Below are positions 11,786 through 30,324 of a stretch of 32,969 nt of DNA, one piece after another. The DNA lies in NCBI GenBank assembly GCA_017471285.1, contig JAFUUZ010000015.1:1-32969 (forward strand). Direction: 5' to 3'. Source of the DNA: Paludibacteraceae bacterium. GTDB taxonomy: Bacteria; Bacteroidota; Bacteroidia; Bacteroidales; Paludibacteraceae. A program made the position numbers and the translations under genes. The notes beneath the pieces were generated by a model. That model ran no database searches and had not been told where the DNA came from. It was given only the letters and a program-made list of their open reading frames with translations. The number at the start of each line of letters is the position of its first letter. Position 1 is the stretch's first letter.

Positions 11786-12678
11786 TATAACAATATATTT
11801 GCGATGTCAGGGTTGACGGCTTTGAGGCTCATGAGTGTAGCCCTTGCCGCCATGAGACCGTACTGGGCGGTCTGCGGGAAGTCAATGCCTTTGGCATGTG
11901 CGTAAACCACGCCGGCGAGGAAAGCGTCTCCGGCACCGGTGGTATTTACTATCTCTCCCGGCAGCGCGGGGAAGAGCCATTCCTCCGCCGCCGTTCGGCA
12001 ATAGACGCCTTCGCCGGAGAGGGTTATATAGACATGTGCGACGCCCAAGTCCAGCAGTCTCTGCGCCGCCTCGGCGTAGGTAGCCGTCTCGGTCACCGCC
12101 AGCGCCTCTTTGAGATTCAGTTTGAGGGTATGGAGATACGGCAGTTTGGCTTTGCGCAGGGCGTTCACCACGCGGTGCGCTTTGGTCGTACTGACGCCGT
12201 CGATAAAGAGCGGCGCGGTTACATTTTCCATGAGCCACCGGATGGCGTCTTCGCCAATATTGGTGTCCGCTACGATAAACTCGGACTGGTTGATCTCCCC
12301 GCTCCTTTTGGCGAGCCATTCAGGCGTGATAGCCTTGATAGCTTCTGTGTCCGCCACCGCGGCTATCATCTCGCCGCCGGAGTTGTTCATACACAGGTAA
12401 ATGCCGGAGCGCACGCCGCTCACCCGTTCGGACAGATGCACGTCAATGCCTTGCTGCTTGCAATAGTCGTGCAGCAGTCCTCCGAAGAGGTCGTCTCCGA
12501 AGATAGTCAGCAACTGCGTCTTAGCTCCGAGCAGGACCAGGTTATGGGCGATATTCCTCGCCACGCCGCCGTAGCCGACCTCAATGTGTCCGGGATTGGA
12601 GTCTGCCGCAATGAAAGCGTCCGCCAGCGTAGCCGACATATCCACATTTGCGCCTCCTATAACTGAAACAGAAATCAT
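11785..12678 (-). CDS. psuK: PfkB-family kinase, pseudouridine kinase
   Basis: A 297-residue ribokinase-family enzyme. It has the substrate site VIGGANVDMSA, GGVARNIAHNLVLLG and the ATP/anion-hole signature NTTGAGDAFLAG with the catalytic aspartate. Overlap with psuG (1 bp) makes pseudouridine its most likely substrate; the sequence alone would allow other nucleosides. It has its own promoter (12710-12741). The start codon sits inside a type B repeat (cgtaaatga), and the short leader is largely repeat sequence. Confidence 0.92.
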   Translation of the reverse strand: MISVSVIGGANVDMSATLADAFIAADSNPGHIEVGYGGVARNIAHNLVLLGAKTQLLTIFGDDLFGGLLHDYCKQQGIDVHLSERVSGVRSGIYLCMNNSGGEMIAAVADTEAIKAITPEWLAKRSGEINQSEFIVADTNIGEDAIRWLMENVTAPLFIDGVSTTKAHRVVNALRKAKLPYLHTLKLNLKEALAVTETATYAEAAQRLLDLGVAHVYITLSGEGVYCRTAAEEWLFPALPGEIVNTTGAGDAFLAGVVYAHAKGIDFPQTAQYGLMAARATLMSLKAVNPDIANILL

Positions 12679-12709
12679 TTACGATTGGGTCATTTATGAT
12701 TTACGAGTG
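12676..12709. repeat. type B repeat spanning the psuK start
   Basis: On the minus strand: cgtaaatcataaatgaccc then aatcgtaaatga, the last unit providing the ATG of psuK. Same family as at 13672-13686, 16985-17018, 24741-24773 and 28898-28925. Confidence 0.75.
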
Positions 12710-12741
12710 CAAATTTACTGCTTTTTTTGCATATACGCAAA
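12710..12741 (-). promoter_or_regulatory. promoter of psuK-psuG
   Basis: Minus strand TTTG (12738-12741), 20 nt, TAAATTTG (12710-12717). The start of the RNA is near 12703, 25 nt before the psuK ATG. Confidence 0.75.
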
Positions 12742-12794
12742 TATATAAAGAAAAAAAATGCTCTGAGGGCGCGGAAATCAGCAGTAAAAGGTAT

Positions 12795-12868
12795 AAAAAC
12801 AAAGAAGGATGTCTCCCGACATCCCAATCTTTTTACTTAACCTTAAATCTAATACCATGAAAAACACG
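12795..12868 (-). ncRNA. probable small RNA (or long leader) upstream of psuK
   Basis: A leftward transcript of about 75 nt is defined at both ends. A strong promoter (12872-12903) lies upstream and a clean intrinsic terminator (GGATGTC-ggga-GACATCC then TTCTTTGTTTTT) closes it. The middle, gtgtttttcatggtattag then atttaaggttaag, contains no useful open frame. I have a recollection of a very similar ATGGTATTAGATTTAAGG segment recurring in Bacteroidales intergenic regions, but cannot name a family. It might also act as an attenuated leader for psuK, though psuK has its own promoter further down. Confidence 0.6.
12800..12826 (-). terminator. intrinsic terminator of the small RNA
   Basis: Perfect 7-bp stem GGATGTC/GACATCC (12807-12813/12818-12824) with a 4-nt loop. 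On the minus strand it is followed by a T-rich tail; on the plus strand caatcttttt follows, so it may work for both directions. Confidence 0.75.
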
Positions 12869-12871
12869 GTG

Positions 12872-12903
12872 CAAAAGTACTGCTTTTTGACGAACTGACC
12901 AAA
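12872..12903 (-). promoter_or_regulatory. promoter of the small RNA
   Basis: Minus strand TTTG (12900-12903), 20 nt, TACTTTTG (12872-12879), followed by CACCG as at several other promoters in the window. Confidence 0.75.
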
Positions 12904-12988
12904 TATTTTGCAAAAAAAGTGTTATAAAACATAAAACTGCAAAGCCCAGTTTACAAAAAACAGAACACTTAAACTTAAATCGAACATT
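12904..12988. other. AT-rich spacer after trmD
   Basis: No gene or clear hairpin is visible between the trmD stop and the small-RNA promoter; the sequence is A-rich on the plus strand. Confidence 0.5.
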
Positions 12989-13669
12989 TTATTTTTCATC
13001 TAATAAATCGGGTCTTTTCTGGCGTGTGTGCTCCAGCGATTGCTCATATTGCCATTCCTCGATCTTAGCCTGGTTGCCGGACAGGAGAATCTCGGGCACC
13101 TTCCATCCTTTGTATTCGGCAGGGCGTGTATAGACCCCTGCTTCGAGGAGTCCGTCCTGGAAGGAGTCATTGAGCGCGGACTCGACATCCCCGAGTGCAC
13201 CGGGCAGGAGCCGCACGATTGCGTCAGTCATCATAGCAGCAGGCATTTCGCCTCCGGTGAGGACAAAATCGCCGATCGAGAACTCGCGCGTAATAAAATG
13301 ATCGCGCACGCGCTGGTCCACGCCCTTATAATGGCCGCAGAGGATAATGATATTCTCTTTGAGGGAGAGGGAGTTGGCTGCTTTCTGGTCGAACCGTTCG
13401 CCGTCGGGAGCCGTGAAAATGATTTCGTCGTAATGCCGCTCGGCAGTGAGGGCGGAGATGCAGCGGTCGATAGGTTCGATCTGCAGCACCATGCCGGCAC
13501 CGAAGCCGAAGGCGTAGTCGTCCACCTTGCGGTGTTTATCGAGGGTCCAGTCCCGCAGGTTATGCACATAAATCTCGCACAGCCCTTTGGCTTTCGCGCG
13601 GGCTATAATAGAATGGTTGAGGGGTGACTCCAGGAGTTCCGGACAACAAGTAATAATGTCGATTCGCAT
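12989..13669 (-). CDS. trmD: tRNA (guanine-N1)-methyltransferase
   Basis: A 226-residue SPOUT methyltransferase that makes m1G37 in tRNAs with a G next to the anticodon, preventing frameshifts. The deep-knot region is seen as [14 protein letters not shown] and the SAM-site segment as [27 protein letters not shown] precedes it. Its length is slightly below that of the E. coli protein, normal for Bacteroidetes. It is the last gene of the long leftward run that starts with acpP. A type B repeat (aatcgtaaatcac) lies 3 nt before the ATG. Confidence 0.95.
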
Positions 13670-13671
13670 AA

Positions 13672-13686
13672 TGTGATTTACGATTT
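13672..13686. repeat. type B repeat in front of trmD
   Basis: On the minus strand taaatcgtaaatcac, three bases upstream of the trmD ATG; it also carries the yidD stop codon at its start. Confidence 0.6.
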
Positions 13687-13957
13687 AGGGTACAGGGTCG
13701 TAGCCGGAGCCTCCCCAGGGGTGGCAACGGAGGATGCGTTTGATACCGAGCCATGTACCTTTGAAGATACCGTATTTGAGCACCGCCTCTACCATGTACT
13801 GGCTGCAGGTAGGCGTATAGCGGCACGAAGGAGGCGTCAAGGGTGAGATGAACACCCGGTAGAAATAGACAGGGAGTAAAAACAATTTGCGGAGAAGAAG
13901 CCTGCCCCGTCCCTCCCCGGAAGGAGGGAGATTATTTTCAGAGTGTTCGCTATTCAT
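13685..13957 (-). CDS. yidD: membrane protein insertion efficiency factor YidD
   Basis: A 90-residue membrane-associated protein thought to help YidC insert proteins. The family signature [19 protein letters not shown] and [14 protein letters not shown] is complete. Start at 13957 overlaps the rnpA stop by 8 bp, the usual rnpA-yidD arrangement. The N-terminal ~18 residues ([12 protein letters not shown]…) are longer than usual and include codons from a type E palindrome (13910-13929), so this part looks acquired. No alternative start codon is available between it and the conserved core. Confidence 0.92.
13903..13936. repeat. type E palindromic element (copy 2), inside yidD
   Basis: Palindrome TCCCTCC-ccggaa-GGAGGGA (13910-13929) preceded by tgccccg. 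In frame in the N-terminal extension of YidD. Confidence 0.7.
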
Positions 13958-14354
13958 TGGCTTTTATCTTTTTCAAGGCTTTGATGACGGCTTTCTCTAC
14001 AACCGCATAGGGCTGTATCTCTTTGTCAATATAATTGAAGGCGATGAGGTAACTCCGTTGACCGCTTTGTTGCAAGGTCTCTAAGGCTGTAGGATCGCTG
14101 GCGCCGGAAGACCGCTCCGCTGTTAGAATCCCTTGGTTGAGGCGGTACGCCTCGCGCATGAGACGCCGCAGACGGTTTCTATCCACGGCATGTTTGAAGA
14201 GCGATTTGGGAGCCCAGACCAGAACCGAGTTTTGGTCATTCACCTGCCATGTGATCCGGAGAGGCCACGAAGTGAACCGTTTGCCGGACTTATAGAAGGC
14301 AGCAATCCGTTCCTTGCCGCAGAGGCGGCTATGTTTGGGAAAGGAGTTAGACAT
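13950..14354 (-). CDS. rnpA: ribonuclease P protein component
   Basis: A 134-residue basic protein that partners RNase P RNA in trimming tRNA 5' ends. The RNR motif is read as [20 protein letters not shown], with the aromatic FYKSGKRF segment ahead of it. Its start overlaps the hemD stop by 8 bp and its stop overlaps yidD, so it lies in a tightly coupled run. Confidence 0.93.
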
Positions 14355-15093
14355 TTTTCTCCAAATACTCCGCTATTGCCATAGGCAGGGAGGCGAAGGT
14401 CTTGCCGGGACCTGCCTCTATATCCACGCGGTAACCCGCCTCCTCAAGAGCACGGATAGTGCCTTCTCCGAAAGCCGCGATGAGCGTATCGCCCTGTTTC
14501 CAGTCCGGGAAGTTCTCCCGCAGCGAAGTGACGCCTGCCGGCGTAAAGAGCCCTATCAGATCATACTCGAAAGGTTTATCCTTGGGCCATGGCGTTGTGA
14601 CGGTCCGATACATAATAGCCGGTGTCACCTCCACGCCGTTGAGGGCGAACATATTGATCTGGTCGTCCGTATGGATGTCGGAAAGCACCATCAGATATTT
14701 CTCGTTCGGCCGGCGGTGCATGGCAGGAAGAAGGTCTTCGAACTTATTGCCCTGCTCGGGGAAGAAGACTTTCCGTTTGCGGTAATTGATAAATTTCTGC
14801 AGATAGAGCCCCACCTGCTCCGAATTGCAATAATAGTGCATCGAGTCGGGGACGTTCAGCCGCATTTCCTCACACATGCGGAAGTAATGCTCCGCGCCGA
14901 GGCGTGAGTTCAGTATGACCGCCGTATAGTCCAGAGGGTTGATGCGCTGTTTGCGGAACTCGCTCGCCGAAAGGCCTTCGACATGAATAAACTGATAAAA
15001 GTCGCATTCCACGCCAAACTGTCCCTCCAGACGAGAATAAGGGTTATGTTCCGTCGTAGGACGAGGTTGAGAAAAAAGAAGTCTTTTAATCAT
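14347..15093 (-). CDS. hemD: uroporphyrinogen-III synthase
   Basis: A 248-residue enzyme that cyclises hydroxymethylbilane to uroporphyrinogen III. The sequence is of the divergent Bacteroidetes type: start MIKRLLFSQPRPTTE, then VEGLSASEFRKQ, and a second domain with GLFTPAGVTSLRENFPDW and IAAFGEGTIRALEEAGY. An open frame runs up to 15342, but 15093 is the right start: it matches the family N-terminus and overlaps the DUF4271 stop by ATGA. It is downstream of DUF4271, a common Bacteroidetes pairing. Confidence 0.85.
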   Translation of the reverse strand: MIKRLLFSQPRPTTEHNPYSRLEGQFGVECDFYQFIHVEGLSASEFRKQRINPLDYTAVILNSRLGAEHYFRMCEEMRLNVPDSMHYYCNSEQVGLYLQKFINYRKRKVFFPEQGNKFEDLLPAMHRRPNEKYLMVLSDIHTDDQINMFALNGVEVTPAIMYRTVTTPWPKDKPFEYDLIGLFTPAGVTSLRENFPDWKQGDTLIAAFGEGTIRALEEAGYRVDIEAGPGKTFASLPMAIAEYLEKNV

Positions 15094-15746
15094 ATGATTG
15101 ATATCGTTTTTGCAGAAAATAATACCATGGCTGCCATAGGCAGCAGTTCTAATGTAGCCATGTATACCAGGAGATAGAGGAGTGCTATCGGTTTGCGCAC
15201 AAACTGACGCACCCCGCGGTACATCCACAGCAGGAAGAAGACACCTCCCAAGATCCCCAGAAGCCATCCGGATGCTACGGGCGAGTCGATATGCACGAAA
15301 AGGAGCAGCAGGGGGTACAGAACCACCATCGCTAGTGTACATATATTGGAATAATGTTCGCCCGCCTCGCCGTAAGAGCGCGTAAGCCGGAAGGTATAGT
15401 CAACCAGAAGGATCAGCAGTGTCTTCACAATCAGTACACCGAGAATAACCCCGCATACCGCAGCAAAAGCGGCTCCGGAGAAGCGGTCCTCGGGGCGGAA
15501 ACACAGGCATAGCCCCATGGCCAGGGTGCCTATCCGGAAAAGCGTGATGAAGAGCTGCGCCAGGTAGTTGACCGGCGCATCTTTGTATGTCCGCTCGGCA
15601 TGCACAGTAAGCGACGAGGCGGCTTGGCTGATCACGCCGGGTTGCAGCCACTCGCTGAGGAACGCCATGACAAGCAGTAGCAGCATCGTCCATCCGCACC
15701 AAGGTGCAGTCAGCGGAGAGATAATATGCGGGAGGGAGGTCAGCAT
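15090..15746 (-). CDS. DUF4271 membrane protein
   Basis: A 218-residue integral membrane protein with about six to seven hydrophobic segments (e.g. GWTMLLLLVMAFL, FAAVCGVILGVLIVKTLLILL, ICTLAMVVLYPLLLLFV). It matches the DUF4271 family of Bacteroidetes, always encoded next to hemD; function unknown. It overlaps hemD by 4 bp and the U32 gene by 7 bp. Confidence 0.75.
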   Translation of the reverse strand: MLTSLPHIISPLTAPWCGWTMLLLLVMAFLSEWLQPGVISQAASSLTVHAERTYKDAPVNYLAQLFITLFRIGTLAMGLCLCFRPEDRFSGAAFAAVCGVILGVLIVKTLLILLVDYTFRLTRSYGEAGEHYSNICTLAMVVLYPLLLLFVHIDSPVASGWLLGILGGVFFLLWMYRGVRQFVRKPIALLYLLVYMATLELLPMAAMVLFSAKTISII

Positions 15747-17020
15747 TCAGTGGTCCAGAGATACATTTTGTCCCCTCTGCGGATGAGGGTTTCCGTTTTG
15801 ATTGCAAAATATTGTCCTTTCTCCACGCGTGCGGTAGGTTTGCCTTGGTCGTCATGCATGTTATGTGCGACGCACTCATACACGCCGGTGGTCTCGCCGG
15901 TAATGAGCAGTTCCTGCCCTTCCTCTATGCTGTCCACGGCCTCAAGCACAAACTCTGCCACGCTCAGGTTCTTGAAGAAATTGGTGCATTTGGCAGCATA
16001 GATCTTCTTGCGCGTTGCTTTATTGCCATAGGAATGGGTCCATTCGCCCAGCCGCTGACCTTGATAATAACCGTCCCAGAAGCCGCGGTTGAAGACACGG
16101 CTGAGCCGTTCGTTCCAGTCCGCTATCTTCGGTTCAATGACCGTGTCGTCGTCATACTCGCCGCGACGCCATGCCTCCACTGCCTCTTTGTAGCATTTCA
16201 CGACCGTAGAGACATACTCCGCTCCTCGTGCGCGCCCTTCTATCTTGAGGACCCGCACGCCGGCATCCAGCATCTTGTTGAGGAAATGGATCGTTTTCAG
16301 ATCCTTCGGCGACATGATGTACTGGTTGTCAATGTCCAGCTCCAGATCAGACGACTTGTCTTTGACGGTATAGCCACGCCTGCACACCTGCACGCACGCC
16401 CCCCGGTTAGCCGAGAGACCGTAGTTATTGAGACTCAGGTAGCATTTGCCGCTGACCGCCATACACAATGCGCCGTGACAGAACATCTCGATGCGAATAG
16501 GCTGACCGCTCCGTCCGCATATGTGCTGCTCCTCGATGTCGCGATAGATAGACGCGACCTGCTCCATGTTCAGTTCGCGCGCCAGGACAACGACATCCGC
16601 AAACTGCGCATAGAACCGCAGCGCCTCGGTGTTCGCTATGTTAAGCTGGGTGGAGAGATGTACCTCCTGACCGATGCTGTTAGCGTACTGCATTACCGCG
16701 ATGTCGCTTGCAATAACAGCGTCCACGCCCACGGCATGCGCCTTGTCCACTATCTCGCGCATCAGAGGCAGATCCTCGGGGTACATGACCGTATTGACCG
16801 TCAGGTAGGTCTTTACGCCCGCTTCACGGCATGTGGACACGATTGTAGCCATGTCTTCTGTGGTAAAATTGACCGAACTGCGTGCGCGCATGTTCAGGTG
16901 CTCTATACCGAAATAGACAGAGGTGGCTCCGGCTTGTATCGCCGCAGCCAGACTCTCCCAACAACCGACAGGAGCCATGATATTTACCATCGGGTCATTT
17001 ACCATTGGGTCATTTAGCAT
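15740..17020 (-). CDS. peptidase U32-family protein
   Basis: A protein of 416-426 residues of the U32 family, whose known members (RlhA, TrhP, UbiU/V) act in RNA hydroxylation or ubiquinone synthesis and bind an iron-sulphur cluster. The signature [19 protein letters not shown] with [11 protein letters not shown] gives the four conserved cysteines. RlhA/TrhP-like RNA modification is the likeliest role. The frame starts at 17020, within the end of asd; ATG at 16990 ([14 protein letters not shown]) fits the family better. The 10 extra residues [10 protein letters not shown] are coded by a 15-bp tandem repeat. Which start is used cannot be decided. Confidence 0.85.
16985..17018. repeat. type B repeat at the asd/U32 junction
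   Basis: On the minus strand two 15-bp units aatgacccaatggta and aatgacccgatggta plus a partial third. The TGA of asd lies in the first unit and the in-frame units code [10 protein letters not shown] at the U32 N-terminus; each unit carries an in-frame ATG. Confidence 0.85.
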
Positions 17021-18014
17021 TTTGTATCAGGTACTCCGCTATCTGTACCGCGTTGAGTGCTGCACCCTTTCGGATCTGGTCGCTCACGCACCAGAAACTG
17101 AGTCCGTTCTCGTCCGTCAGATCCTTTCTGATACGGCCTACAAAGACCTCGTCCTTGCCGCTCAGGAACAGCGGCATCGGATAGACCTTGTTCTCCGGTT
17201 CGTCCATCAGCACACACCCGGGAGCCTGTGCGAAAGCCTCTCTCGCCTCCGCCACGCTGACCGGCCGCTCTGTCTCGACCCACACGCTCTCGCTATGCGC
17301 CCTGAGCGACGGCACACGCACACAGGTAGCACTGACCTTGACATCCGAATGCATGATCTTGCGCGTCTCATTGTACATTTTCATCTCTTCCTTGGTATAG
17401 CCGTTGTCGGTAAAGACATCGATATGAGGGATGACATTATACGCCAACTGATACGCGAATTTGTTTACCGTCACTTCCTCTCCGTTCAGCAGTTGACGGT
17501 ATTGTGTCTCCAACTCTTTCATTGCCTGCGCCCCTGCTCCCGAAGCCGCTTGATACGTGGACACACGCACGCGGCGGATATGGCTCAGACGCTCTATGGC
17601 CTGCAGAGCCACCACCATCTGGATCGTCGTACAGTTAGGATTAGCAATGATGTTCCGCGGACGGATCAACGCATCTTTGGCGTTCACCTCCGGAACGACC
17701 AAAGGCACATCGTCATCCATCCGGAAGGCGGATGAGTTATCTATCATTACCGCGCCGTAGCGGGTGATGTCCTCCGCGTACATACGCGAGACGCTCGCGC
17801 CCGCGGAAGTAAAAGCAATATCGACGCCCCGGAAGGCGTCGCCGTGTTGCAACAACTGTACTTCGTACTCTTTGCCGCAAAATTCATACTTAGTGCCGGC
17901 ACTCCTCTCCGAGCCGAACAAACGTAGTTCGGAGAGAGGGAATTGCCGCTGTGCAAGCACAGCCAGCAATTCCTGTCCGACGGCGCCGGAGGCGCCTACA
18001 ATCGCGATAACCAT
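17010..18014 (-). CDS. asd: aspartate-semialdehyde dehydrogenase
   Basis: A 334-residue cytoplasmic enzyme that reduces aspartyl phosphate to aspartate semialdehyde for lysine, diaminopimelate, methionine and threonine synthesis. NADP site GASGAVGQE at the N-terminus, catalytic Cys128 in ANPNCTTIQ, substrate-binding [14 protein letters not shown] and His in PSLRAHSE are all present. It is within the long acpP-to-trmD run, 2 bp after the small wHTH gene. The stop codon comes from a type B repeat. Confidence 0.95.
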
Positions 18015-18016
18015 AA

Positions 18017-18211
18017 TTAAGCCAATGCGATGATAATGTCAGCTTCAGCCTCAGTGAAGGTAATCTTACCTTCGCGAGCCAGCCAACCCAGCGCCAGGTA
18101 AAGCTCCTCGTTTTTCAGTTTCGTAGCTTTCTTGAGGGCTTTCAGACCCTGTGCACCGTTCTGCAGGGCATTCCAGAGAAGACCTGCGTTTTCTCCAATT
18201 TTTGCAATCAT
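18017..18211 (-). CDS. small winged-helix protein (DUF2582-like)
   Basis: A 64-residue protein predicted as a single winged helix-turn-helix: [35 protein letters not shown], then the wing. It resembles the PF10771-type small wHTH proteins of Bacteroidetes, whose function is unknown. It stands between fabF and asd, with 41 bp to fabF. Confidence 0.75.
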
Positions 18212-18238
18212 AATACCTTAATTTTAGTTAGACTAATT

Positions 18239-18258
18239 GAGTGAATTATGGGTCACTC
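18239..18258. other. short inverted repeat at the fabF stop
   Basis: GAGTGA-attatggg-TCACTC, a perfect 6-bp stem that includes the fabF stop codon. No T-run follows on either strand, so it is more likely an RNA-stability or processing hairpin than a terminator. Confidence 0.35.
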
Positions 18259-19521: not shown

Positions 19522-19533
19522 AATGTGATATAA

Positions 19534-19569
19534 AAAAGTATACGAGTTTACAGTTTTCCCGTAAACTCG
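19534..19569 (-). terminator. hairpin between acpP and fabF, probable partial terminator
   Basis: Perfect 9-bp stem CGAGTTTAC/GTAAACTCG (19543-19551/19561-19569), loop 9 nt; on the minus strand TATACTTTTTTA follows. This should let acpP mRNA exceed fabF mRNA, with read-through to the downstream operon. Confidence 0.65.
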
Positions 19570-19590
19570 CAGACCAATGTGTAAAGAGAA

Positions 19591-19830
19591 TTACTTCGCT
19601 AATTTACCCTCTACATAAGCGATAGCGTCGCCTACGGTAGCAATTTTCTGAGTGTCCTCATCAGGAATTTCGATTCCGAACTCTTTCTCGAATTCCATGA
19701 TCATCTCCACTGTATCCAGGGAGTCTGCACCCAGATCTGTTTGGAAATTAGCCTCACGTGTTACCTGAGACTCTTCTACACCAAGTTTATCAGCAATGAT
19801 TGCTTTTACTTTTGCTTCAACTTCTGCCAT
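19591..19830 (-). CDS. acpP: acyl carrier protein
   Basis: A 79-residue acidic four-helix carrier of acyl chains in fatty-acid synthesis. The phosphopantetheine site is Ser37 in [12 protein letters not shown]. The length is standard. It has its own promoter (19909-19940) and is the first gene of a long leftward run through fabF to trmD. Confidence 0.97.
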
Positions 19831-19908
19831 AATACTAAATGTTTAATTAATATATGTTTTTCTTAATTTTCGTAATCTTCGATATACGCGCATTCCGCAA
19901 AATCGGTG

Positions 19909-19940: not shown

Positions 19941-19950
19941 TTTTTTTGCG

Positions 19951-20778: not shown

Positions 20779-20814
20779 ACTATTATGATTTATTCCTTTC
20801 AAGGGGCAAGGTCT

Positions 20815-22617: not shown

Positions 22618-22662
22618 GCTCTTTCTCAAACTATAGGTTAGCCCAACTCATCCCGGGGCTTC

Positions 22663-22899
22663 CTATAATAAAATATACACCCCGAAAATCAGGATGGCAA
22701 GAAGAGCGATCAGCAACAAGAGCCGCGACGGACGTTTCCTGCGCAACTCTGTCATATTCTTCTCATGCTCCTCTCGGAACGACCCGTGATGAAGACGCGC
22801 AAGTTTTCTATCCTTGCGCGCCTCCTTATCCTTATCGTAGTAAATGGGGCGATAGTCCCACTCACGGGGTTTGTTTACTTTCGGAAATAATACCGACAT
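22663..22899 (-). CDS. small C-terminally anchored membrane protein
   Basis: A 78-residue protein with a charged N-terminal part (KDKEARKDRKLARLHHGSF) and one hydrophobic segment at the end (LLLLIALLAILIFGVYILL), so probably tail-anchored in the inner membrane. Small proteins of this look occur near mutL in Bacteroidales; the function is unknown. Its ATG shares one base with the stop of the TPR lipoprotein gene, which supports the start. Confidence 0.75.
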   Translation of the reverse strand: MSVLFPKVNKPREWDYRPIYYDKDKEARKDRKLARLHHGSFREEHEKNMTELRRKRPSRLLLLIALLAILIFGVYILL

Positions 22900-24584
22900 T
22901 ATTTAACGATTGCTTGGAACTCTGCGTCCTCTGCAAACTTAGCGAACTCAATATCCTGAGCTGCACGAGCCTTCAGGCTTGCATCCTGTGCGATAGCCGA
23001 TTTCAGGTTCTCATAGACAGCTGCCTTGTCGTTGGTGCGGGCACCTACGATAGCTTTCAGGTAAGCGGTCGTTGCGTTCGGCTCTTTAACGTTTGCCAGT
23101 GTCTTGGCTGCGCCTGCATAGTCCTCGTCCAGGATCTGCTGAACAGCGGCGTTGTTCGATGCGGTCTCTCCGTATGCTTTCTTGGCTGCGTTGTAGTCAC
23201 CCTTAGCGGTGTACAGCGTACCCAGAGCGGCATTCAGGTTAGCCTTCGTTCCGGCTGCTTTGCCCAGATACTCTTCTGCTTTTGCCAGATCACCGTCTGC
23301 AATAGCGGCAACACCTGCGTTGTAGTTCACGTCCGGATCATTCGGCTGGATCTCCAATGCCTTGCTGTAGCAGCGGCGAGCCTCTGCGATATCTCCGTTG
23401 CTGAAGTAGATCTGACCCATGCTGTTCCATGCGCGGTAGTCGTTGTATTGGTCTGCAGCTTGTTTGTAGATAGCCAGTTTCTCAGCCTTGTCCTCGGTCA
23501 GAGTAGCAGCATAAAGCAACTCCTCTACGCTCAGCTGGGAAGCATCTTTCTTGGCGATCTCGCGGATCTCATCATCGCTCTTGCCGATCAGGTCGGTTGT
23601 CAGGATCAGACGGCTGCGGCGGAGTGCCGGCAGGATCTCCTCTGCGATTGTGCCATATACTGCGCTCAGGTTCTTGATCTGTGCCTCGCGCTCCTCAGGA
23701 TCGCTGTACATCGACAGAACACGGAGAACGAGGTCTTTGTCTTGCATATTACTGTTCTCCATCGCTTTGCGGAAGCCTTCCCAGTCCTCAGCAGTGATAT
23801 TCGACTCGATAGCCGTGTTCACTTTGTTCTTCTTGAGGTCTTTCTTCAGGAAGTTAGCTGCTGCTTTCTGACGGTTCTTAGCCAGGTTCTCGTTCAGGCT
23901 CATGCCGCCATCAGGAGATGCATAACCTGCTACCTCGATCTTGCTGATCTCTTTGCGCTCTGCCTCTTTGGCGTCCTTGATAGCTGCTTGGAGGTTCTTA
24001 ACGCTCTCGCTCTTGGTCTCAGCCGAACGGAGCTCTGCGGATTGAATGAGGAACTTGATGTCTGCCTCGGTCAACTCCTGAATAACGCGTTGGAACTTGT
24101 CCGGAGTTCCGGCAGTCTTGTTGTCTCTTGCGTCTGCCAACTCGGAAGTAGCTACTACGCCGTCTGCAATCTTCAGATCAGGAATCTCAATCACTTTCTT
24201 TCCTACTTTGGCTTCGAAACGGAGATAAAGCTCCGATTTGCGCATTGCGGGAACATAGTCAAACGAGCAGCTCTGTTTGTAAGTACCGCCGTTCTTGTAA
24301 TTAACGGTCTTGCCGTTCTCTTTTGCTTTCTCACCTACATAGGTAACAGGATCGCCTAATACCTCTTGGCCTTCGAATTTCAGCACCGGAGTAACGGTCA
24401 ACACACCTTTCCGCGCAAATTTCTTCTCCGGGAATGTACCGGTAATCTCTGCGTTCACTTTGTTACCTACCTTCTCCAGAGGGCTCGGATTTACGGTAAT
24501 CTCATCGGGTTTCGGTAACGATTTGTTACATGATGCCAACATTACCACTGCAGCAATGAGGCTAAGAAATAAACCTTTCTTCAT
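22899..24584 (-). CDS. TPR and OmpA-like domain lipoprotein
   Basis: A 561-residue envelope lipoprotein. Signal peptide MKKGLFLSLIAAVVMLASC with lipobox Cys near residue 19. Residues ~20-150 are a beta-rich region; ~210-260 contain an OmpA-like peptidoglycan-binding segment (EVAGYASPDGGMSLNENLAK…R); the last ~200 residues contain tetratricopeptide-like helical repeats (e.g. AWNSMGQIYFSNGDIAEARRCY, KALEIQPNDPDVNYNAG). It probably links the outer membrane to peptidoglycan or scaffolds envelope complexes; no specific function is assigned. The start at 24584 fits the signal peptide better than the one at 24590. It is driven by a strong promoter (24630-24660). Confidence 0.85.
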   Translation of the reverse strand: MKKGLFLSLIAAVVMLASCNKSLPKPDEITVNPSPLEKVGNKVNAEITGTFPEKKFARKGVLTVTPVLKFEGQEVLGDPVTYVGEKAKENGKTVNYKNGGTYKQSCSFDYVPAMRKSELYLRFEAKVGKKVIEIPDLKIADGVVATSELADARDNKTAGTPDKFQRVIQELTEADIKFLIQSAELRSAETKSESVKNLQAAIKDAKEAERKEISKIEVAGYASPDGGMSLNENLAKNRQKAAANFLKKDLKKNKVNTAIESNITAEDWEGFRKAMENSNMQDKDLVLRVLSMYSDPEEREAQIKNLSAVYGTIAEEILPALRRSRLILTTDLIGKSDDEIREIAKKDASQLSVEELLYAATLTEDKAEKLAIYKQAADQYNDYRAWNSMGQIYFSNGDIAEARRCYSKALEIQPNDPDVNYNAGVAAIADGDLAKAEEYLGKAAGTKANLNAALGTLYTAKGDYNAAKKAYGETASNNAAVQQILDEDYAGAAKTLANVKEPNATTAYLKAIVGARTNDKAAVYENLKSAIAQDASLKARAAQDIEFAKFAEDAEFQAIVK

Positions 24585-24629
24585 ATGCATATAAATTTGT
24601 TAATTTATGTTGATTTTCAAAATCCGCTG

Positions 24630-24660
24630 CAAATTTACTATAAAATTTTCGAATATGCAA
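24630..24660 (-). promoter_or_regulatory. promoter of the TPR/OmpA lipoprotein gene
   Basis: Minus strand TTG (24658-24660), 20 nt, TAAATTTG (24630-24637) then CAGCGGATTTT. The same downstream sequence is present after the ohrR promoter. Confidence 0.8.
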
Positions 24661-24696
24661 GATTTTTGTAAAAAAAAACATTTATATGCCTAAAAA

Positions 24697-24728
24697 TTTG
24701 CATATATGCAAGATTTGTAGTACCTTTG
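24697..24728 (+). promoter_or_regulatory. promoter of udk
   Basis: TTTG (24697-24700), 20 nt, TACCTTTG (24721-24728). It lies inside an upstream in-frame extension of udk and so rules out starts before about 24735. Confidence 0.8.
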
Positions 24729-24740
24729 TACCCCGAAATG

Positions 24741-24773
24741 AACAAATTATAAATGACCAAATCGTAAATGGCT
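24741..24773. repeat. type B repeat in front of udk
   Basis: aacaaattataaatgaccaa followed by atcgtaaatgg, ending a few bases before the ATG at 24776. The near-identical piece aatcgtaaatg stands before psuK, trmD and ohrR. Confidence 0.75.
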
Positions 24774-24775
24774 TT

Positions 24776-25390
24776 ATGTTTATCATCGGCATTGCGGGCG
24801 GTACCGGCTCGGGTAAAACTACGGTAGTCAAAAAACTGATCGAGCGTCTTCCGAAAGGAGAAGTCGTTGTTATTCCACAAGACTCCTATTACAAAGACAG
24901 TAGCAACGTTCCTGTTGAGGAACGCCAGAATATCAACTTCGATCACCCCGATGCCTTCGACTGGCCGCTCCTCGCAAAGCATATCAAGATGCTCAAAGAG
25001 GGACAAGCCATCGAACAACCTATTTATTCTTATATCACGTGCACGCGTCAGAAAGAGACGATTCATATAGAGCCGAAAGAAGTGATTATTGTAGAAGGCA
25101 TCATGGCGCTGCGGGAATTCAAGATGCGCGAGCAGATGGACCTGAAAATCTTTGTGGACGCCGATGCCGACGACCGTCTCATCCGGGTTATGAAACGCGA
25201 TGTGGTGGAAAGAGGACGTACTGCAGAGGCTGTCATTGACCGCTATCAAAGAGTCCTCAAACCCATGCACGAACAGTTTATCGAACCGTGTAAAAGATTT
25301 GCGGACGTCATCGTGCCGCAGGGAGGACATAATAACGCGGCTATCAACATGCTTGCCAAATTCGTCAAACAGCAGCTCGCAGACAAATAA
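24776..25390 (+). CDS. udk: uridine kinase
   Basis: A 204-residue P-loop kinase that makes UMP and CMP from uridine and cytidine. Start MFIIGIAGGTGSGKTT with the Walker A motif GGTGSGKTT at residues 8-16; DSYYKD, NFDHPDAFDWPLL and IIVEGIMALREF are the usual blocks. A longer frame opens at 24686, but the promoter (24721-24728) falls inside the extension, which sets the start at 24776. Divergent from the TPR lipoprotein gene. Confidence 0.93.
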   Translation: MFIIGIAGGTGSGKTTVVKKLIERLPKGEVVVIPQDSYYKDSSNVPVEERQNINFDHPDAFDWPLLAKHIKMLKEGQAIEQPIYSYITCTRQKETIHIEPKEVIIVEGIMALREFKMREQMDLKIFVDADADDRLIRVMKRDVVERGRTAEAVIDRYQRVLKPMHEQFIEPCKRFADVIVPQGGHNNAAINMLAKFVKQQLADK

Positions 25391-25397
25391 GGGACTT

Positions 25398-25452
25398 TTA
25401 CGACTCGATTACGACTCGATTACGACTCATTTACGACTCATTTACGAGTTCA
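25398..25452. repeat. 11-bp tandem repeat after udk
   Basis: ttacgactcga x2, ttacgactcat x2 and a fifth ttacgagttca: five 11-bp units in a row. It is related to type B (tttacgatt) but has a longer unit and higher copy number; it lies 7 bp beyond the udk stop. Confidence 0.85.
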
Positions 25453-25496
25453 GAAACACGTGTTCGACGTCTTGAAAATGTACGCTCATTAAGATT

Positions 25497-26033
25497 TTGT
25501 TTTTTCAACTCTTTTATACATACTTGAAAATCGGCACCTTCACCCTGGGTGGAGGGTATGCTATGTTACCCCTCATACAACGGGAAGTGGTTGAGCGCAA
25601 AAAATGGATTGACGAGGAAGAGTTTCTCAATATGATCGCTCTCGCGCAAGCCGCGCCGGGACTTATTGCCGTCAATTCGGCTATTTTCATCGGATGGCGG
25701 ATCGGAGGATGGAGAGGCGTCTGCGGAGCCGTGTTGGGGGCTGTACTGCCATCGTTCCTGATCATTCTTGCTATCGCGATGGTTTTCTCCGAATGGAAAG
25801 AACTGCCTGCCGTCGAAGCAGCATTCAAAGGGATTCGTCCTGCCGTAGTGGCGCTCATCGCTGCGCCGCTCTTCAAAATGGCGAAAGCGGCTAAGATCAG
25901 TTGGCTGACTTCCCTTATCCCGATTGCCGCAGCCTTGCTGATTTGGCTTGGGCATGTCAACCCCGTCTGGGTCATTCTCGCTACAATTGTCATTACGCTC
26001 TGCACCGAATGGATCATAAAACGTAATTCGTAA
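25497..26033 (+). CDS. chromate transporter family protein, first half
   Basis: A 178-residue membrane protein of the CHR family. N-terminal LKIGTFTLGGGYAMLPLIQREV is the family signature, and AQAAPGLIAVNSAIFIGWRIGG the conserved second block. The start codon is TTG at 25497: the sequence MFFQLFYTYLKIG fits the family N-terminus, no ATG precedes it in frame (stop at 25473). It and the next gene form the usual pair of short CHR proteins that work together. Chromate or sulfate transport is proposed for the family, but the substrate in anaerobes is unproven. Confidence 0.85.
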   Translation: MFFQLFYTYLKIGTFTLGGGYAMLPLIQREVVERKKWIDEEEFLNMIALAQAAPGLIAVNSAIFIGWRIGGWRGVCGAVLGAVLPSFLIILAIAMVFSEWKELPAVEAAFKGIRPAVVALIAAPLFKMAKAAKISWLTSLIPIAAALLIWLGHVNPVWVILATIVITLCTEWIIKRNS

Positions 26034-26046
26034 TTCGTAATTTCTA
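26022..26046. repeat. cgtaatt repeat between the two transporter genes
   Basis: Three copies of the heptamer cgtaatt followed by tct; it covers the last codons and stop of the first gene and ends 2 nt before the ATG at 26048. Confidence 0.8.
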
Positions 26047-26047
26047 A

Positions 26048-26653
26048 ATGCTTTATCTGCAACTCTTCATATCGTTCTTCAAGATCGGACTCTTCGGATT
26101 CGGTGGAGGTCTGGCTATCTTGTCTTTGATCCAGATGGAAGTGGAACAATACGGATGGATGAGCCAGCAGGAGTTCGTCGATATTGTTGCTATCAGCCAG
26201 GTCACGCCCGGTCCGATCGGTATCAACTGTGCTACATATGTCGGTTATACCACTGCGGGATTCTGGGGAAGTGTCTTGGCTACATCCGCTATCATCCTGC
26301 CGAGTCTGATCATTATGCTGTCTATTTGCAGGGCGTATTTCTGGCTCAACCGGCGTTTTCATGACAATCCGTACTTCTCACAAACGCTGCGAATGCTCCG
26401 TTTCACGGTCCTCGGACTCATTGCCTCGGCGGCACTCATGCTCATCAAACCCGCGAATTTCATTGATTCTGCTTCGTGGATTATCTTTGCATTAGTGGCT
26501 TTCTGCACTATTCTGCCGGAAATCTCGAAACCGCTTGTAAACAAAACGCCCCCTCCGGTTAGGAAGGGGCTTGGGGCTGGTCTGTCTTTTGTTTCCCACC
26601 CTATTCTACTGATCGTTCTTGCCGGTCTTGCCGGCTACCTGATCTACCGTTGA
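26048..26653 (+). CDS. chromate transporter family protein, second half
   Basis: A 201-residue CHR-family membrane protein: FFKIGLFGFGGGLAILSLIQ at the start, then SQVTPGPIGINCATYVGY and several membrane segments. Residues ~164-180 (KTPPPVRKGLGAGLS) interrupt an otherwise hydrophobic C-terminal region between two membrane segments and are encoded by the type E palindrome at 26541-26583. Start 26048 is just after a cgtaatt repeat. The 3' end overlaps the convergent AI-2E transporter gene by 10 bp. Confidence 0.87.
   Translation: MLYLQLFISFFKIGLFGFGGGLAILSLIQMEVEQYGWMSQQEFVDIVAISQVTPGPIGINCATYVGYTTAGFWGSVLATSAIILPSLIIMLSICRAYFWLNRRFHDNPYFSQTLRMLRFTVLGLIASAALMLIKPANFIDSASWIIFALVAFCTILPEISKPLVNKTPPPVRKGLGAGLSFVSHPILLIVLAGLAGYLIYR
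26541..26583. repeat. type E palindromic element (copy 3), inside chrA
   Basis: Hairpin GCCCC-c-TCC-ggtta-GGA-a-GGGGC (26548-26570) with a ttggggctggtctg tail. It is the inverse orientation of copies 1 and 2 in gene direction terms. It is in frame in a loop of the transporter. Confidence 0.8.
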
Positions 26654-27705
26654 TTCTCTTTCGGCCGTCGTAACCGTCCGCGATACTCCGCTTGGTGGGC
26701 ACGGGAACTGACACCCCTGTTCGCCACATAGCGGTCGTAATAAGAGATGATGAGTGTTGTTATCGGCAGCGCAATAATCATTCCTATCACACCGCACAGC
26801 GCACCCCAGATACTGAGACTGAGAAGGATAGCAGCCGGACTCATGCCGGTCACGTTTCCCATGATCTTAGGCGTCAGCACCATGTCCTGAATACTCTGTA
26901 CCACGATAAAAACAACCGTCATCATCAATAATGTCAGCCATACCGGCTGCCCGGTCTGAGCCGACTGAATCAGACATAACACGATGCACGGAGGAATACC
27001 TAATGCCTGCATATAAGGCACCATATTCAGCAAACCGATAATCAATCCCATCGCAATACCCATCGGCATGCCGGTAATGGTAAAACCGATAGCGAACAGT
27101 ATTCCTACGCAGGTAGCCACCATCGCCTGACCGCGGAAATAGGCGTTCATATTCCTGTCAATATCGCCCATGAGCGTTACAACTCTCGGACGGATCTTGC
27201 GGGGGATATACCTGCTGTAGTTCGCCCGGATATTGGGAAAATCGATCATCAGGAAAATCAGATACATAAATCCGATGAACACAACCAACAGTTCGCTCAT
27301 CCAACTCAGTCCGCCTGTGATCCAGTTGCCGATTTTCGGCAGCAGTTCCTTGATCGAGGTGGTCAGTTCCGGATTAGCCAGTACGCTTTTCCAGTCCCAG
27401 TTCTCCTGCCATTGCAGCAGTTTCTCCTGAGTCTCGGCAGATACGTATTGGTTAATGTCGAAAGTAGCGATATAGCTTTGAAAACCCGCCCATGCAGTAT
27501 TGACCTGATCCATTACCGGTTTACGCAATGCCGCAACAGCCCCGGCTACTATTCCTACCGCCAGGACCAGTGTCACGACTACCGCCAGCGCACGGTTCCG
27601 CACACGGCATTTGGTCTGGATAAACACCACAATCGGGTCCAGCACATAAGCCAACAGGAAACTGACGAAGAACGGCAGTAATACCCCGTAGAGACGACTG
27701 AACAT
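26644..27705 (-). CDS. AI-2E transporter family membrane protein
   Basis: A 353-residue polytopic protein of the AI-2E/PerM family (transport role uncertain). It has LLPFFVSFLLAYVLDPIV near the start, central helices (MSELLVVFIGFMYLIFLMIDFP) and IPPCIVL / LSLSIWGALCGVIGMIIALP near the end. Compared with relatives, the usual first membrane helix of ~25-30 residues is missing: the frame begins at LYGVLLPFF, and the upstream gene ends only 2 bp before it. It overlaps the convergent chrA gene by 10 bp. Confidence 0.85.
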   Translation of the reverse strand: MFSRLYGVLLPFFVSFLLAYVLDPIVVFIQTKCRVRNRALAVVVTLVLAVGIVAGAVAALRKPVMDQVNTAWAGFQSYIATFDINQYVSAETQEKLLQWQENWDWKSVLANPELTTSIKELLPKIGNWITGGLSWMSELLVVFIGFMYLIFLMIDFPNIRANYSRYIPRKIRPRVVTLMGDIDRNMNAYFRGQAMVATCVGILFAIGFTITGMPMGIAMGLIIGLLNMVPYMQALGIPPCIVLCLIQSAQTGQPVWLTLLMMTVVFIVVQSIQDMVLTPKIMGNVTGMSPAAILLSLSIWGALCGVIGMIIALPITTLIISYYDRYVANRGVSSRAHQAEYRGRLRRPKENQR

Positions 27706-27707
27706 AC

Positions 27708-28199
27708 TTATTTACGGATCTTGCCGGTGATTAGGTTCCACACGCGGCTGAACAGATTCATATAGAAATTCAGTTCCCGCGTAGCATTCTCCACATGGCA
27801 TTCCATCCGCACGCTCTGCAGCTCAGCCTGATGCTCCGCCTCCAGGGTCTTGAGTGCCAGTTCTTCTTCTGTCTGGATCTCTTTGCTCAGCAGTTTGATA
27901 AACGGATGGATAAACAGCGGTTTATAGAACGCTATAGCAATGATAATCAGCACAATATACACACATCCTATAATCAGAGCCGCAGCCCAGACAGGCATGT
28001 ATGCAGACATCGCATCAATCGCCGCTACGGCGCCGAAGGAGAATAATGCCAGCACACATAACACCAGCGTAAAAATCAGCAGGAACAAGCCTAATACACG
28101 GCTGACGATACCGATGAGACGGAGACGTCCCACTTCTCCCATGGATTTACCGTAATCGGTCAACTCGTTCTTGAGTTGCTCTAAAATCTCGTTTTCCAT
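27708..28199 (-). CDS. phage-holin-family/YqjE-like membrane protein
   Basis: A 163-residue protein with two hydrophobic segments (LGLFLLIFTLVLCVLALFSF and WAAALIIGCVYIVLIIIAIAFY) and a hydrophilic C-terminus. The arrangement fits the Holin-X/YqjE superfamily found outside phages, next to YtxH proteins. No phage context exists here. It lies 2 bp after YtxH and 2 bp before the AI-2E gene, so they are co-transcribed. Confidence 0.7.
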   Translation of the reverse strand: MENEILEQLKNELTDYGKSMGEVGRLRLIGIVSRVLGLFLLIFTLVLCVLALFSFGAVAAIDAMSAYMPVWAAALIIGCVYIVLIIIAIAFYKPLFIHPFIKLLSKEIQTEEELALKTLEAEHQAELQSVRMECHVENATRELNFYMNLFSRVWNLITGKIRK

Positions 28200-28201
28200 A
28201 C

Positions 28202-28438
28202 TTATGCTTCTTCTTTTACAGGTTCCTCTTTCGGTTGCTCTTCTACCGCGTTGGCTTCTGCCAGATCCTGCTTCAACCGGTCGCAGTAATCCTGCATGTG
28301 TTTCTTTGCCTCCTCGGCATAATCAGCAATCTGTTGACGCACTTCTTCTCCGTTTTTCGGAGTCAATAACATGGCAGCTGCTGCGCCTACCAATGCGCCG
28401 CCGATAAAGAGCGCGGCTCCTCTGAATAAGTTGTTCAT
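28202..28438 (-). CDS. YtxH domain protein
   Basis: A 78-residue protein with a single N-terminal membrane segment (GAALFIGGALVGAAAAMLLTP) followed by the PKNGEEVRQQI stretch typical of YtxH and a glutamate-rich coil. Proposed stress-related envelope protein; exact function unknown. Confidence 0.85.
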   Translation of the reverse strand: MNNLFRGAALFIGGALVGAAAAMLLTPKNGEEVRQQIADYAEEAKKHMQDYCDRLKQDLAEANAVEEQPKEEPVKEEA

Positions 28439-28450
28439 GATAATACGGTT

Positions 28451-28897
28451 TTATTTATTGGTTTGTTGTAATCCTTCTATTAGTTTGTCCAATGACGGAA
28501 TTATGTTTGTTATCTCTTCCATCGACACATGTTGGAGCACTTGTTTGCTTAAATCATCCGGTATGTTTTTTGCCTGTTCGCGCATAGCGATACCTTTCGG
28601 CGTAAGGGATACGATGCGTTGCCGCGTGTCTTTCTCACCGCGTTTGCGTACGATAAATCCGGCTTTCTCCATCCGTTGGAGAAGCGGTGTCACGGTGTTT
28701 GTCTCCAGATGCAGCCGTTTCGCAATGTCGTTCACCGGCTGCTGATCCTTCTCCCAAAGCACAAGAAGCACCAAGTACTGCGGATAAGTGATCCCTAATG
28801 GTTCGAAATAGGGATTATACGCTCCGGCCACCAGACGCGAAGCCGTGTATAGCCGGAAACAGAGTTGGTTGTCTAATTTCAGTTGCTCGTACACCAT
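28451..28897 (-). CDS. MarR-family regulator of the OhrR type
   Basis: A 148-residue winged-helix repressor. The N-terminal LKLDNQLCFRLYTASR has the reactive Cys13 that OhrR proteins use to sense organic peroxides, and YFEPLGITYPQYLVLLVLWE and the DNA-binding helices RLHLETNTVTPLLQRMEKAG and REKGEKDTRQR-like wing are typical. The peroxidase gene ohr is not adjacent; instead it starts a leftward unit with YtxH, holin-like and AI-2E transporter genes. A type B repeat (aaatcgtaaatgac) abuts the start codon. Confidence 0.87.
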   Translation of the reverse strand: MVYEQLKLDNQLCFRLYTASRLVAGAYNPYFEPLGITYPQYLVLLVLWEKDQQPVNDIAKRLHLETNTVTPLLQRMEKAGFIVRKRGEKDTRQRIVSLTPKGIAMREQAKNIPDDLSKQVLQHVSMEEITNIIPSLDKLIEGLQQTNK

Positions 28898-28925
28898 GTC
28901 ATTTACGATTTATTCATATACGATT
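28898..28925. repeat. type B repeat abutting the ohrR start
   Basis: On the minus strand cgtatatgaataaatcgtaa then atgac directly before the ATG at 28897. Confidence 0.7.
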
Positions 28926-30172: not shown

Positions 30173-30180
30173 TCGTTAGT

Positions 30181-30284: not shown

Positions 30285-30324
30285 TCATTTTGTTAATGTA
30301 TTCAGGGTCTCGAACGACCGTTTG

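What the first reader, a model, noticed from the sequence alone, without database searches (positions are those of the whole stretch)
12676..28925. AATCGTAAATGAC-like repeats sit directly before start codons of unrelated genes
Near-identical units end 0-9 nt before, or overlap, the start codons of psuK (12678), trmD (13669), udk (24776) and ohrR (28897); a related 15-bp unit gives start codons to the U32 gene (17020/17005/16990). Heptamer arrays abut spt and the second CHR gene. Bacteroidetes are known to depend little on Shine-Dalgarno pairing and favour A-rich, unstructured initiation regions, so such a repeat could serve as a ready-made initiation region. This placement is too regular to be random insertion alone.
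Basis: partly seen in the sequence, partly recalled or inferred. Interest (0 to 1): 0.85.

Follow-up and report, generated by a model that had tools for sequence, protein, structure and literature searches.

The report
In-frame 15-bp repeats at start codons
In one group of uncultured gut bacteria a 15-letter DNA word is repeated at the starts of unrelated genes and also inside proteins, nearly always the same way round and usually in its one reading frame without stops; the placement is far from random, but it looks more like repeats surviving where they do no harm than like a purpose-built start signal.

Summary
All five named start codons in the window carry sense-oriented AATCGTAAATGAC-like units. 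They belong to a 15-bp tandem word, GTAAATGACCAAATG, present in 63 of 101 genus genomes and in 2 of 148 other genomes of the order. In about 2 Mb from five species, 48 of 61 intergenic arrays have a co-oriented start at their end, against 10.7% of random intergenic positions. Orientation at starts is 58 sense to 2 antisense, and 37 of 58 starts share one register. But the same word also lies inside proteins (35 sense after correction, 1 antisense; 31 of 35 in the only stop-free sense frame, VNDQM), mostly at sites that vary between species. At orthologous junctions, sister species carry other short repeats or none. Array leaders are not less structured, and match the average initiation context worse than other genes. 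Best reading: a fast-turning-over repeat family, filtered by translation, so that copies survive at start codons in register or in-frame inside proteins. A ready-made initiation region is possible, not shown. How the word spreads is unknown. Closest printed case: TAACTGA repeats of Beggiatoaceae.

The parts
12674..12708 (-). 15-bp repeat array forming most of the psuK leader; its last ATG (12678) is the start codon
   Evidence: units AATCATAAATGAC and AATCGTAAATGAT; close orthologues align from residue 3-4 (one from 1) of the 12678 start
12710..12717 (-). TAnnTTTG (TAAATTTG), Bacteroidetes-type -7 box by recalled consensus, 31 nt before psuK ATG, directly upstream of the array
   Evidence: transcription start inferred, not measured
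13670..13685 (-). single unit AATCGTAAATCAC + ATT between the yidD stop and trmD ATG (13669)
   Evidence: TrmD and YidD above NCBIfam cut-offs; the same junction differs in each of 17 related MAGs
16982..17021 (-). 2.7 copies of the 15-bp unit across the asd stop and U32 start; reads [14 protein letters not shown] before the conserved core
   Evidence: conserved U32 core IMAPVG follows in relatives
24721..24728 (+). TACCTTTG, -7-like box 47 nt before udk ATG; 24 of 29 genus orthologues have a TAnnTTTG within 75 nt of the start
24734..24775 (+). 15-bp array that makes up the udk leader between the inferred transcription start and ATG 24776
   Evidence: Udk above NCBIfam cut-off. My caller took an upstream ATG here, so the tallies list this array as CDS (corrected)
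28898..28925 (-). two units (AATCGTATATGAA, AATCGTAAATGAC) ending at the ohrR start codon 28897
28977..28984 (-). TATCTTTG, -7-like box 79 nt before ohrR ATG
6773..6802 (+). heptamer array CTCTAAA, 8 nt before ATG 6811; general intergenic class, not the 15-bp class
26022..26042 (+). heptamer array CGTAATT before the second CHR gene (26048)
25398..25447 (-). 11-bp array (ATGAGTCGTAA) between udk and the first CHR gene, antisense to both; control class that is rare in short co-directional gaps

Best explanation
The units belong to a genus-specific family of short tandem repeats whose 15-bp class (GTAAATGACCAAATG)n occurs at many unrelated loci. Shown here: read on its sense strand the word has one open frame (GTA AAT GAC CAA ATG, VNDQM); the other two frames stop within 15 nt. 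Copies are found almost only (a) at or just before a start codon, sense-oriented and mostly in the register in which the repeat's own ATG is the start codon or an in-frame upstream one, and (b) inside coding sequence, sense-oriented and mostly in that open frame, mostly at positions where orthologues vary. At the three junctions or leaders examined the repeats differ or are missing between species. Inferred: arrays arise by slippage or duplication, plus an unknown process that spreads the same word, and a translational filter decides which survive. Inside proteins the hydrophilic VNDQM frame is tolerated. At starts the in-register sense copy is tolerated because false initiation gives an in-frame extension or a five-codon peptide. 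The antisense strand would give T-rich leaders or hydrophobic inserts and is lost. Start proximity is thus real and selected, but mainly by compatibility rather than by the repeat being an initiation signal; individual leaders may have come to depend on it.
For: Position and strand: 110 arrays in five species (1.98 Mb): start sense 58, CDS sense 37, CDS antisense 1, start antisense 2, stop sense 6, stop antisense 3, other intergenic 3; null 4.7, 37.5, 38.4, 5.0, 3.1, 2.4 and 9.1%. Two of the 37 CDS arrays (window udk and one G015 locus) are really leaders, so 60 and 35. Register: 37 of 58 starts at one of 15 phases; 44 of 58 in the open frame, 12 in the mini-ORF frame, 2 in the third. CDS arrays: 33 of 37 in the open frame, 31 of 35 after the correction. 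Of 33 queried, 21 had cross-species hits, and in 15 of these orthologues show gaps or unrelated residues at the array. Host proteins confirmed by NCBIfam above cut-off: DNA polymerase I, isoleucine--tRNA ligase, glutamate racemase, ObgE, SufB, a RluA-family synthase, alanine racemase. Start positions checked apart from my gene caller: of 37 genes with cross-species N-terminal hits, conserved protein begins -15 to +45 nt from the array end in 31. Turnover: asd-U32 junction, yidD-trmD junction and udk leader. In-frame ATG of the unit kept in 42 of 90 start-proximal units against 43 of 53 in CDS (p 5e-5); with udk moved, 42 of 91 against 43 of 52 (p 2e-5), as expected if extra in-frame AUGs are harmful near starts. 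Initiation-context score and folding no better than other genes.
Against: Pure tolerance should let the word accumulate in either orientation in convergent or long untranscribed gaps, yet period-15 arrays are rare there (1 of 108 convergent gaps and 0.04 per kb, against 31 of 978 and 0.91 per kb in short co-directional gaps). Density at sense starts is about six times that at sense stops (58 per 4.7% against 6 per 3.1%). That leaves room for a positive role or for start-directed generation. How one word reaches many loci is not explained. Four CDS arrays are in another frame. Two pairs of species (G000/G086 and G086/G114) share an array at the same CDS site, and one array counted as CDS (G015 C1) looks like natural conserved sequence, not an insert, so turnover is not total and the tally holds some chance matches.
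Confidence: 0.6

Rival explanations
1. Ready-made initiation region: the repeat supplies an A-rich leader that loads ribosomes without Shine-Dalgarno pairing, and is kept for that.
For: Sense-oriented and start-proximal in leaders and operon junctions alike (35 of 54 array starts have a co-directional neighbour within 60 nt, 12 a wider co-directional gap, 7 an opposite-strand neighbour; other starts 435, 277 and 174 of 886). At udk, psuK and ohrR the array lies between a -7-like box and the ATG. Upstream A content 0.47 against 0.39. In F. johnsoniae adenines at -3, -6 and -12/-13 help initiation (PMC6847099, section read).
Against: PWM score lower than other genes (0.70 against 1.80) and folding equal; two ATGs per unit although AUG is avoided near starts in Bacteroidetes; same word in-frame inside CDS; close relatives have short udk leaders without any array.
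Confidence: 0.22
2. Stop-start ladder: each unit holds a five-codon mini-ORF, ATG ACC AAA TNG TAA, whose stop abuts the next ATG, so tandem units hand terminating ribosomes on to the gene start (termination-reinitiation).
For: Sequence shows it directly (TAAATG). The mini-ORF ATG is kept in 81 of 90 start-proximal units while the in-frame ATG is kept in 42 of 90. Several arrays overlap the upstream gene's stop codon.
Against: The mini-ORF ATG is kept as well in CDS units (53 of 53), where it can do nothing, so its retention may only reflect youth and the detection consensus. Substitutions at codon 4 include A, giving TAG (19 of 90), so no constraint on the peptide.
Confidence: 0.08
3. Binding site of a regulator (RNA- or DNA-binding protein or sRNA), making the array-bearing genes a regulon.
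For: A shared word upstream of unrelated genes; MacGregor proposed this for TAACTGA repeats (PMC4679880, abstract and sections 7, 12, 23).
Against: Not kept at the three orthologous junctions or leaders examined; also common inside CDS; the five window genes share no obvious pathway (names).
Confidence: 0.06
4. Chance or gene-caller artefact: A-rich leaders resemble one another and the caller picks ATGs inside repeats.
For: In the window alone the excess is marginal. Starts were called with a home-made predictor that prefers upstream ATGs and misplaced at least two array genes.
Against: Reversed-pattern controls are at most 3 per genome in 101 genus genomes (e.g. G086 149 hits against 3, G034 63 against 1, G015 53 against 0); protein conservation begins at the array end in 31 of 37 genes; p below 1e-30 against random intergenic positions.
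Confidence: 0.01

Closest known systems
TAACTGA intergenic direct repeats of marine Beggiatoaceae, some Cyanobacteria and Bacteroidetes (MacGregor 2015, PMC4679880; abstract and sections 7, 12, 23 read)
   Same: Short tandem repeats, mostly in forward orientation within a few nt upstream of start codons of unrelated genes; most without a ribosome binding site; function unproven; in F. litoralis 12 of 14 sets are intergenic, forward and 1-43 nt before a start.
   Different: Period 15, not 7, and another sequence; tandem TAACTGA found once in all sets scanned. Here the word is frame-preserving and also frequent inside CDS in sense orientation, whereas 10 BOGUAY sets lie inside ORFs in reverse orientation. 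Register lock to the start codon is an added feature; whether TAACTGA sets have it was not examined.
Rickettsia palindromic elements (RPE) and other in-frame inserted repeats (recalled; only a search listing seen)
   Same: A dispersed repeat found in-frame in many unrelated proteins, also found between genes.
   Different: RPEs are palindromic and about 100-150 bp (recalled); here 15-bp tandem units, not palindromic (10 of 15 self-complementary at best shift).
Short tandemly repeated repetitive (STRR) heptamers of cyanobacteria (recalled, not searched)
   Same: The genus's heptamer arrays fill intergenic gaps in many sequence versions.
   Different: No STRR sequence was compared here; the 15-bp class behaves differently from the heptamers.
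Kozak-like A-rich initiation regions of Bacteroidetes (PMC6847099, abstract and two sections read)
   Same: Start contexts in three genus genomes show A peaks near -14/-13 and about -8 to -5.
   Different: In its main register the repeat does not place its A runs on those peaks, and it brings extra AUGs.

Membership tests
TAACTGA start-codon repeats (MacGregor 2015) | tandem heptamer TAACTGA | tested here: not met
   1 tandem copy in all sets scanned
TAACTGA start-codon repeats (MacGregor 2015) | forward orientation, ending within several nt of a start codon | tested here: met
   58 sense to 2 antisense at starts; 48 of 61 intergenic arrays
TAACTGA start-codon repeats (MacGregor 2015) | almost wholly intergenic | tested here: not met
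   38 of 110 arrays labelled as inside CDS, 36 after correction
Rickettsia palindromic elements | palindromic element of about 100-150 bp (recalled) | tested here: not met
   15-bp unit, best self-complementarity 10 of 15
Rickettsia palindromic elements | in-frame insertion in unrelated proteins | tested here: met
   31 of 35 sense CDS arrays in the open frame; 15 of 21 with cross-species hits differ from orthologues at the site
Bacteroidetes initiation region | sequence context like that of other genes (A-rich at set positions) | tested here: not met
   array starts score 0.70 on the genus PWM against 1.80 for other genes
Bacteroidetes initiation region | lower mRNA structure around the start than other genes | tested here: not met
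   MFE -3.71 against -3.75 for other genes
Bacteroidetes initiation region | raises translation of the gene behind it | not testable with these tools
   needs reporter or ribosome profiling

The most novel reading that the evidence does not exclude
A bilingual repeat: one 15-bp word that a lineage spreads in sense orientation, working both as an in-frame protein linker (VNDQM)n and as a start-codon module, so that gene junctions and protein segments are rebuilt from the same sequence. Because it is so rarely antisense, even the copying step may be tied to transcription or translation (for example RNA-templated), rather than only filtered afterwards.
Probability: 0.15. Interest if true: 0.85.

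Novelty: new variant of a known kind. Interest (0 to 1): 0.6.

Why it matters
Bacteroidetes start translation without Shine-Dalgarno pairing, and how start regions evolve there is open. Here is a lineage in which start regions and gene junctions are rebuilt again and again from short tandem repeats, with orthologous junctions as natural replicates: the same gene with a 15-mer, a heptamer or no repeat in sister species. That makes it testable what a start region needs (composition, spacing, absence of out-of-frame AUG) and how a DNA word can spread through coding and non-coding sequence while keeping strand and frame.

Tried and rejected
Base pairing to 16S rRNA: no 16S was found in the 8 genus genomes searched, so not tested. 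Heptamers as part of the same start-linked class: rejected, they occur in 10 of 108 convergent, 7 of 112 divergent, 102 of 978 short co-directional and 46 of 282 long co-directional gaps; in co-directional gaps of 100 nt or more 27 of 55 lie nearer the start than the stop, although 18 of 55 end within 20 nt of it; and just downstream of stops they are about as frequent as upstream of starts. A weak register of heptamers to the ATG (A-phase resultant 0.19, p 0.04) is too weak to build on. Low structure as the reason: rejected. Loss of the in-frame ATG in units upstream of the called start (14 of 57 kept) is partly forced by how starts were called; only the comparison over all units of start-proximal arrays is used. 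Misplaced by my caller: two arrays tallied as CDS are leaders (window udk, G015 C1 78600); the null and p-values were not rerun for this. Six of 37 start arrays failed the conservation check (four because the alignment already begins inside the array, two at 58 and 274 nt). psuK orthologue leaders were not compared, as the loci could not be cut. Detection needs at most 4 mismatches to a 23-mer, so diverged or single units (trmD's, for one) are missed; 4 or 5 reversed-control hits at that limit in three of the genomes show that a few arrays may be chance. The stretches of G015, G007, G086 and G114 come from contigs already known to hold hits, so densities there are biased upward; position and strand should not be.
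Full report
Setting. The window is the whole of contig C68 of a 1.55-Mb, 87-contig MAG (completeness 55%). Its aspartate-semialdehyde dehydrogenase is 78-91% identical to those of gut MAGs named 'uncultured Bacteroidales', Paludibacteraceae and the like (L204-L221), so this is an uncultured Bacteroidales lineage. NCBIfam confirms TrmD, YidD, Asd and Udk above cut-off; psuK (PfkB-like kinase, best model pseudouridine kinase), the U32 gene and ohrR (MarR-like, best model OhrR) fall below the cut-offs, so these names are probable only. The 'spt' name of the gene at 6811 was not checked.

Observation. In the window by itself the excess is marginal (16 matches against 8.5 expected), so I went to the genome and the genus.

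What the repeat is. In a 420-kb sample of the own genome (27%, window included) intergenic DNA is full of short tandem repeats, with self-match peaks at lags 7, 14, 21; 11, 22; and 15. The pattern GTAAATGANNAAATNGTAAAT is found in 63 of 101 genus genomes, from 1 to 149 hits per genome, with at most 3 hits per genome for the reversed pattern. In a sample of the order it is in 3 of 149 genomes, one of them the own genome, the other two with 3 and 1 hits. It is a genus-level feature, and 38 of 101 genus genomes lack this exact pattern.

Placement. With a home-made gene caller I classified 110 arrays (at most 4 mismatches to a 23-mer) in five species, 1.98 Mb: 58 at a co-oriented start, 2 at an anti-oriented start, 37 inside CDS in sense, 1 inside CDS antisense, 6 and 3 at stops (sense and antisense), 3 elsewhere. 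Random positions give 4.7, 5.0, 37.5, 38.4, 3.1, 2.4 and 9.1%. A recheck moves two of the 37 (the window's own udk leader and one in G015) to the starts: 60 and 35. Start calls were checked with protein conservation: of the 58 genes, 37 had cross-species N-terminal hits, and in 31 of these the conserved part begins within -15 to +45 nt of the array end.

Register. On the sense strand the word has one open frame, GTA AAT GAC CAA ATG; a second frame is a five-codon mini-ORF, ATG ACC AAA TGG TAA; the third stops at TGA. At 37 of 58 starts the start codon stands at the same one of 15 phases, that in which the repeat's own ATG is the start; 9 use the mini-ORF ATG (psuK is one). By frame the split is 44, 12 and 2.

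Inside proteins. Of the 35 sense CDS arrays 31 are in the open frame and put (VNDQM)n-like peptides into proteins. Eight G086 host proteins were scanned: DNA polymerase I, isoleucine--tRNA ligase, glutamate racemase, ObgE, SufB, a RluA-family pseudouridine synthase and alanine racemase (in a MurF-Alr fusion) reach NCBIfam cut-offs, the eighth, RlmI-like, does not. The other four arrays read GKWSNGK-like in a second frame. Of 33 in-frame arrays searched (the two leaders among them), 12 had no cross-species hit. Of the 21 with hits, 15 show gaps or unrelated residues in orthologues (two of these against weak, perhaps paralogous hits), 4 belong to two sites where two species share the array (G000/G086 and G086/G114), 1 (G015 C1) looks like natural conserved sequence, and 1 had no alignment across the array. 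So the word is not specifically an initiation device.

Turnover (read by eye). At the asd-U32 junction, comparable in 18 of 23 loci, the window and L207, L209, L216, L218 and L222 have 15-mers, L208, L211, L212, L213, L215 and L220 have various heptamers, and L226 none; in L219, L221 and L223-L225 the U32 gene does not follow. At yidD-trmD all 17 MAGs differ from the window and from one another before the ATG, often with a heptamer or octamer array. In 29 udk orthologues (window included) 24 have TAnnTTTG within 75 nt, and the end of the leader is similar in the closer ones; the middle is a period-15 array in three (window, L307, L316), heptamer-like in L306, and a short leader of about 29 nt without array in L305, L310, L311, L312, L317 and L318. 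L308 (AATCGTACATCGCTTT) and L319 (AATCGTAATTCGCTTT) have a single copy next to the ATG, which suggests how an array can be nucleated from the native leader.

Does it help initiation? The 54 array starts tested have more upstream A (0.47 against 0.39) but a lower score on the genus initiation PWM (0.70; other genes 1.80; heptamer genes 2.59) and the same folding energy. Baez et al. (PMC6847099; abstract and sections 15 and 18 read) report that Bacteroidetes avoid AUG near starts and that A at -3, -6 and -12/-13 helps in F. johnsoniae; the repeat brings two AUGs per unit. Consistent with AUG avoidance, the in-frame ATG survives in 42 of 90 start-proximal units against 43 of 53 in CDS (p 5e-5; with udk moved 42 of 91 against 43 of 52), while the self-terminating mini-ORF ATG survives in 81 of 90. 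I read this as start-proximal copies being tamed rather than designed. Against me, period-15 arrays are scarce in convergent, divergent and long co-directional gaps (0.04-0.15 per kb against 0.91 in short co-directional gaps), where a merely tolerated repeat should also be found.

Other classes as controls. Heptamers occur in about 6-16% of gaps of all types, convergent included; 11-mers in about 10% of long co-directional, divergent and convergent gaps but in 14 of 978 short co-directional gaps (six sets, near relatives included). In the 35 nt upstream of starts, period-7 arrays stand at 6-10% of genus genes against 0.5-1.2% in other Bacteroidales; downstream of stops the genus has 2-10%.

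Literature. The nearest printed case found is MacGregor 2015 (PMC4679880; abstract and sections 7, 12, 23 read): TAACTGA heptamers, forward, just before start codons, function unproven. The listings of my searches for tandem, heptanucleotide or short tandem repeats with start codons show no paper evidently on the 15-bp word; subscription papers and preprints are not in that library, and listed papers other than the two named were not opened.

Noticed in passing
whole genus; e.g. asd-U32 and yidD-trmD junctions of L204-L222: Sister species carry different intergenic heptamers at the same junction (CCCTAAT, AAATCTC, CAATCAT, AATTTGA, CTGAATA, GGTTATA ...); period-7 arrays stand before 6-10% of genus genes against about 1% in other Bacteroidales.
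   Followed up: partly
window 25398-25447: An 11-bp array, ATGAGTCGTAA, antisense between udk and the first CHR gene; it shares the core CGTAAATGA with the 15-bp class, and the 11-bp class is rare in short co-directional gaps.
   Followed up: partly
G000 L021 17901 and 18090, G086 C11 35327, G114 C5 210277: A second in-frame reading of the word (GKCPDGK, GTCPNGK, GKWSNGK, GTSPNGK) in the four sense CDS arrays that are not in the VNDQM frame.
   Followed up: no
C4 21724 and C6 22275-22483 of G086: Sense arrays at the 3' end of genes directly before a terminator-like hairpin and T run.
   Followed up: no
window 29237-31596: Long near-identical direct repeats between neighbouring genes (30235-30288 with 31562-31615, 91%; 30182-30231 with 31244-31293, 94%), suggesting duplicated genes.
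   Followed up: no
ctrlBact set (26 loci of Bacteroides, Phocaeicola, Parabacteroides and others): A lag-22 self-match peak in intergenic DNA (0.81 runs per kb), possibly one or few arrays.
   Followed up: no
G086 MurI (L173 5893-6795) and its G114 orthologue: Glutamate racemase carries the VNDQM insert in G086 and a quite different, longer insert at the same place in G114, none in G007: a hot spot for insertions.
   Followed up: no
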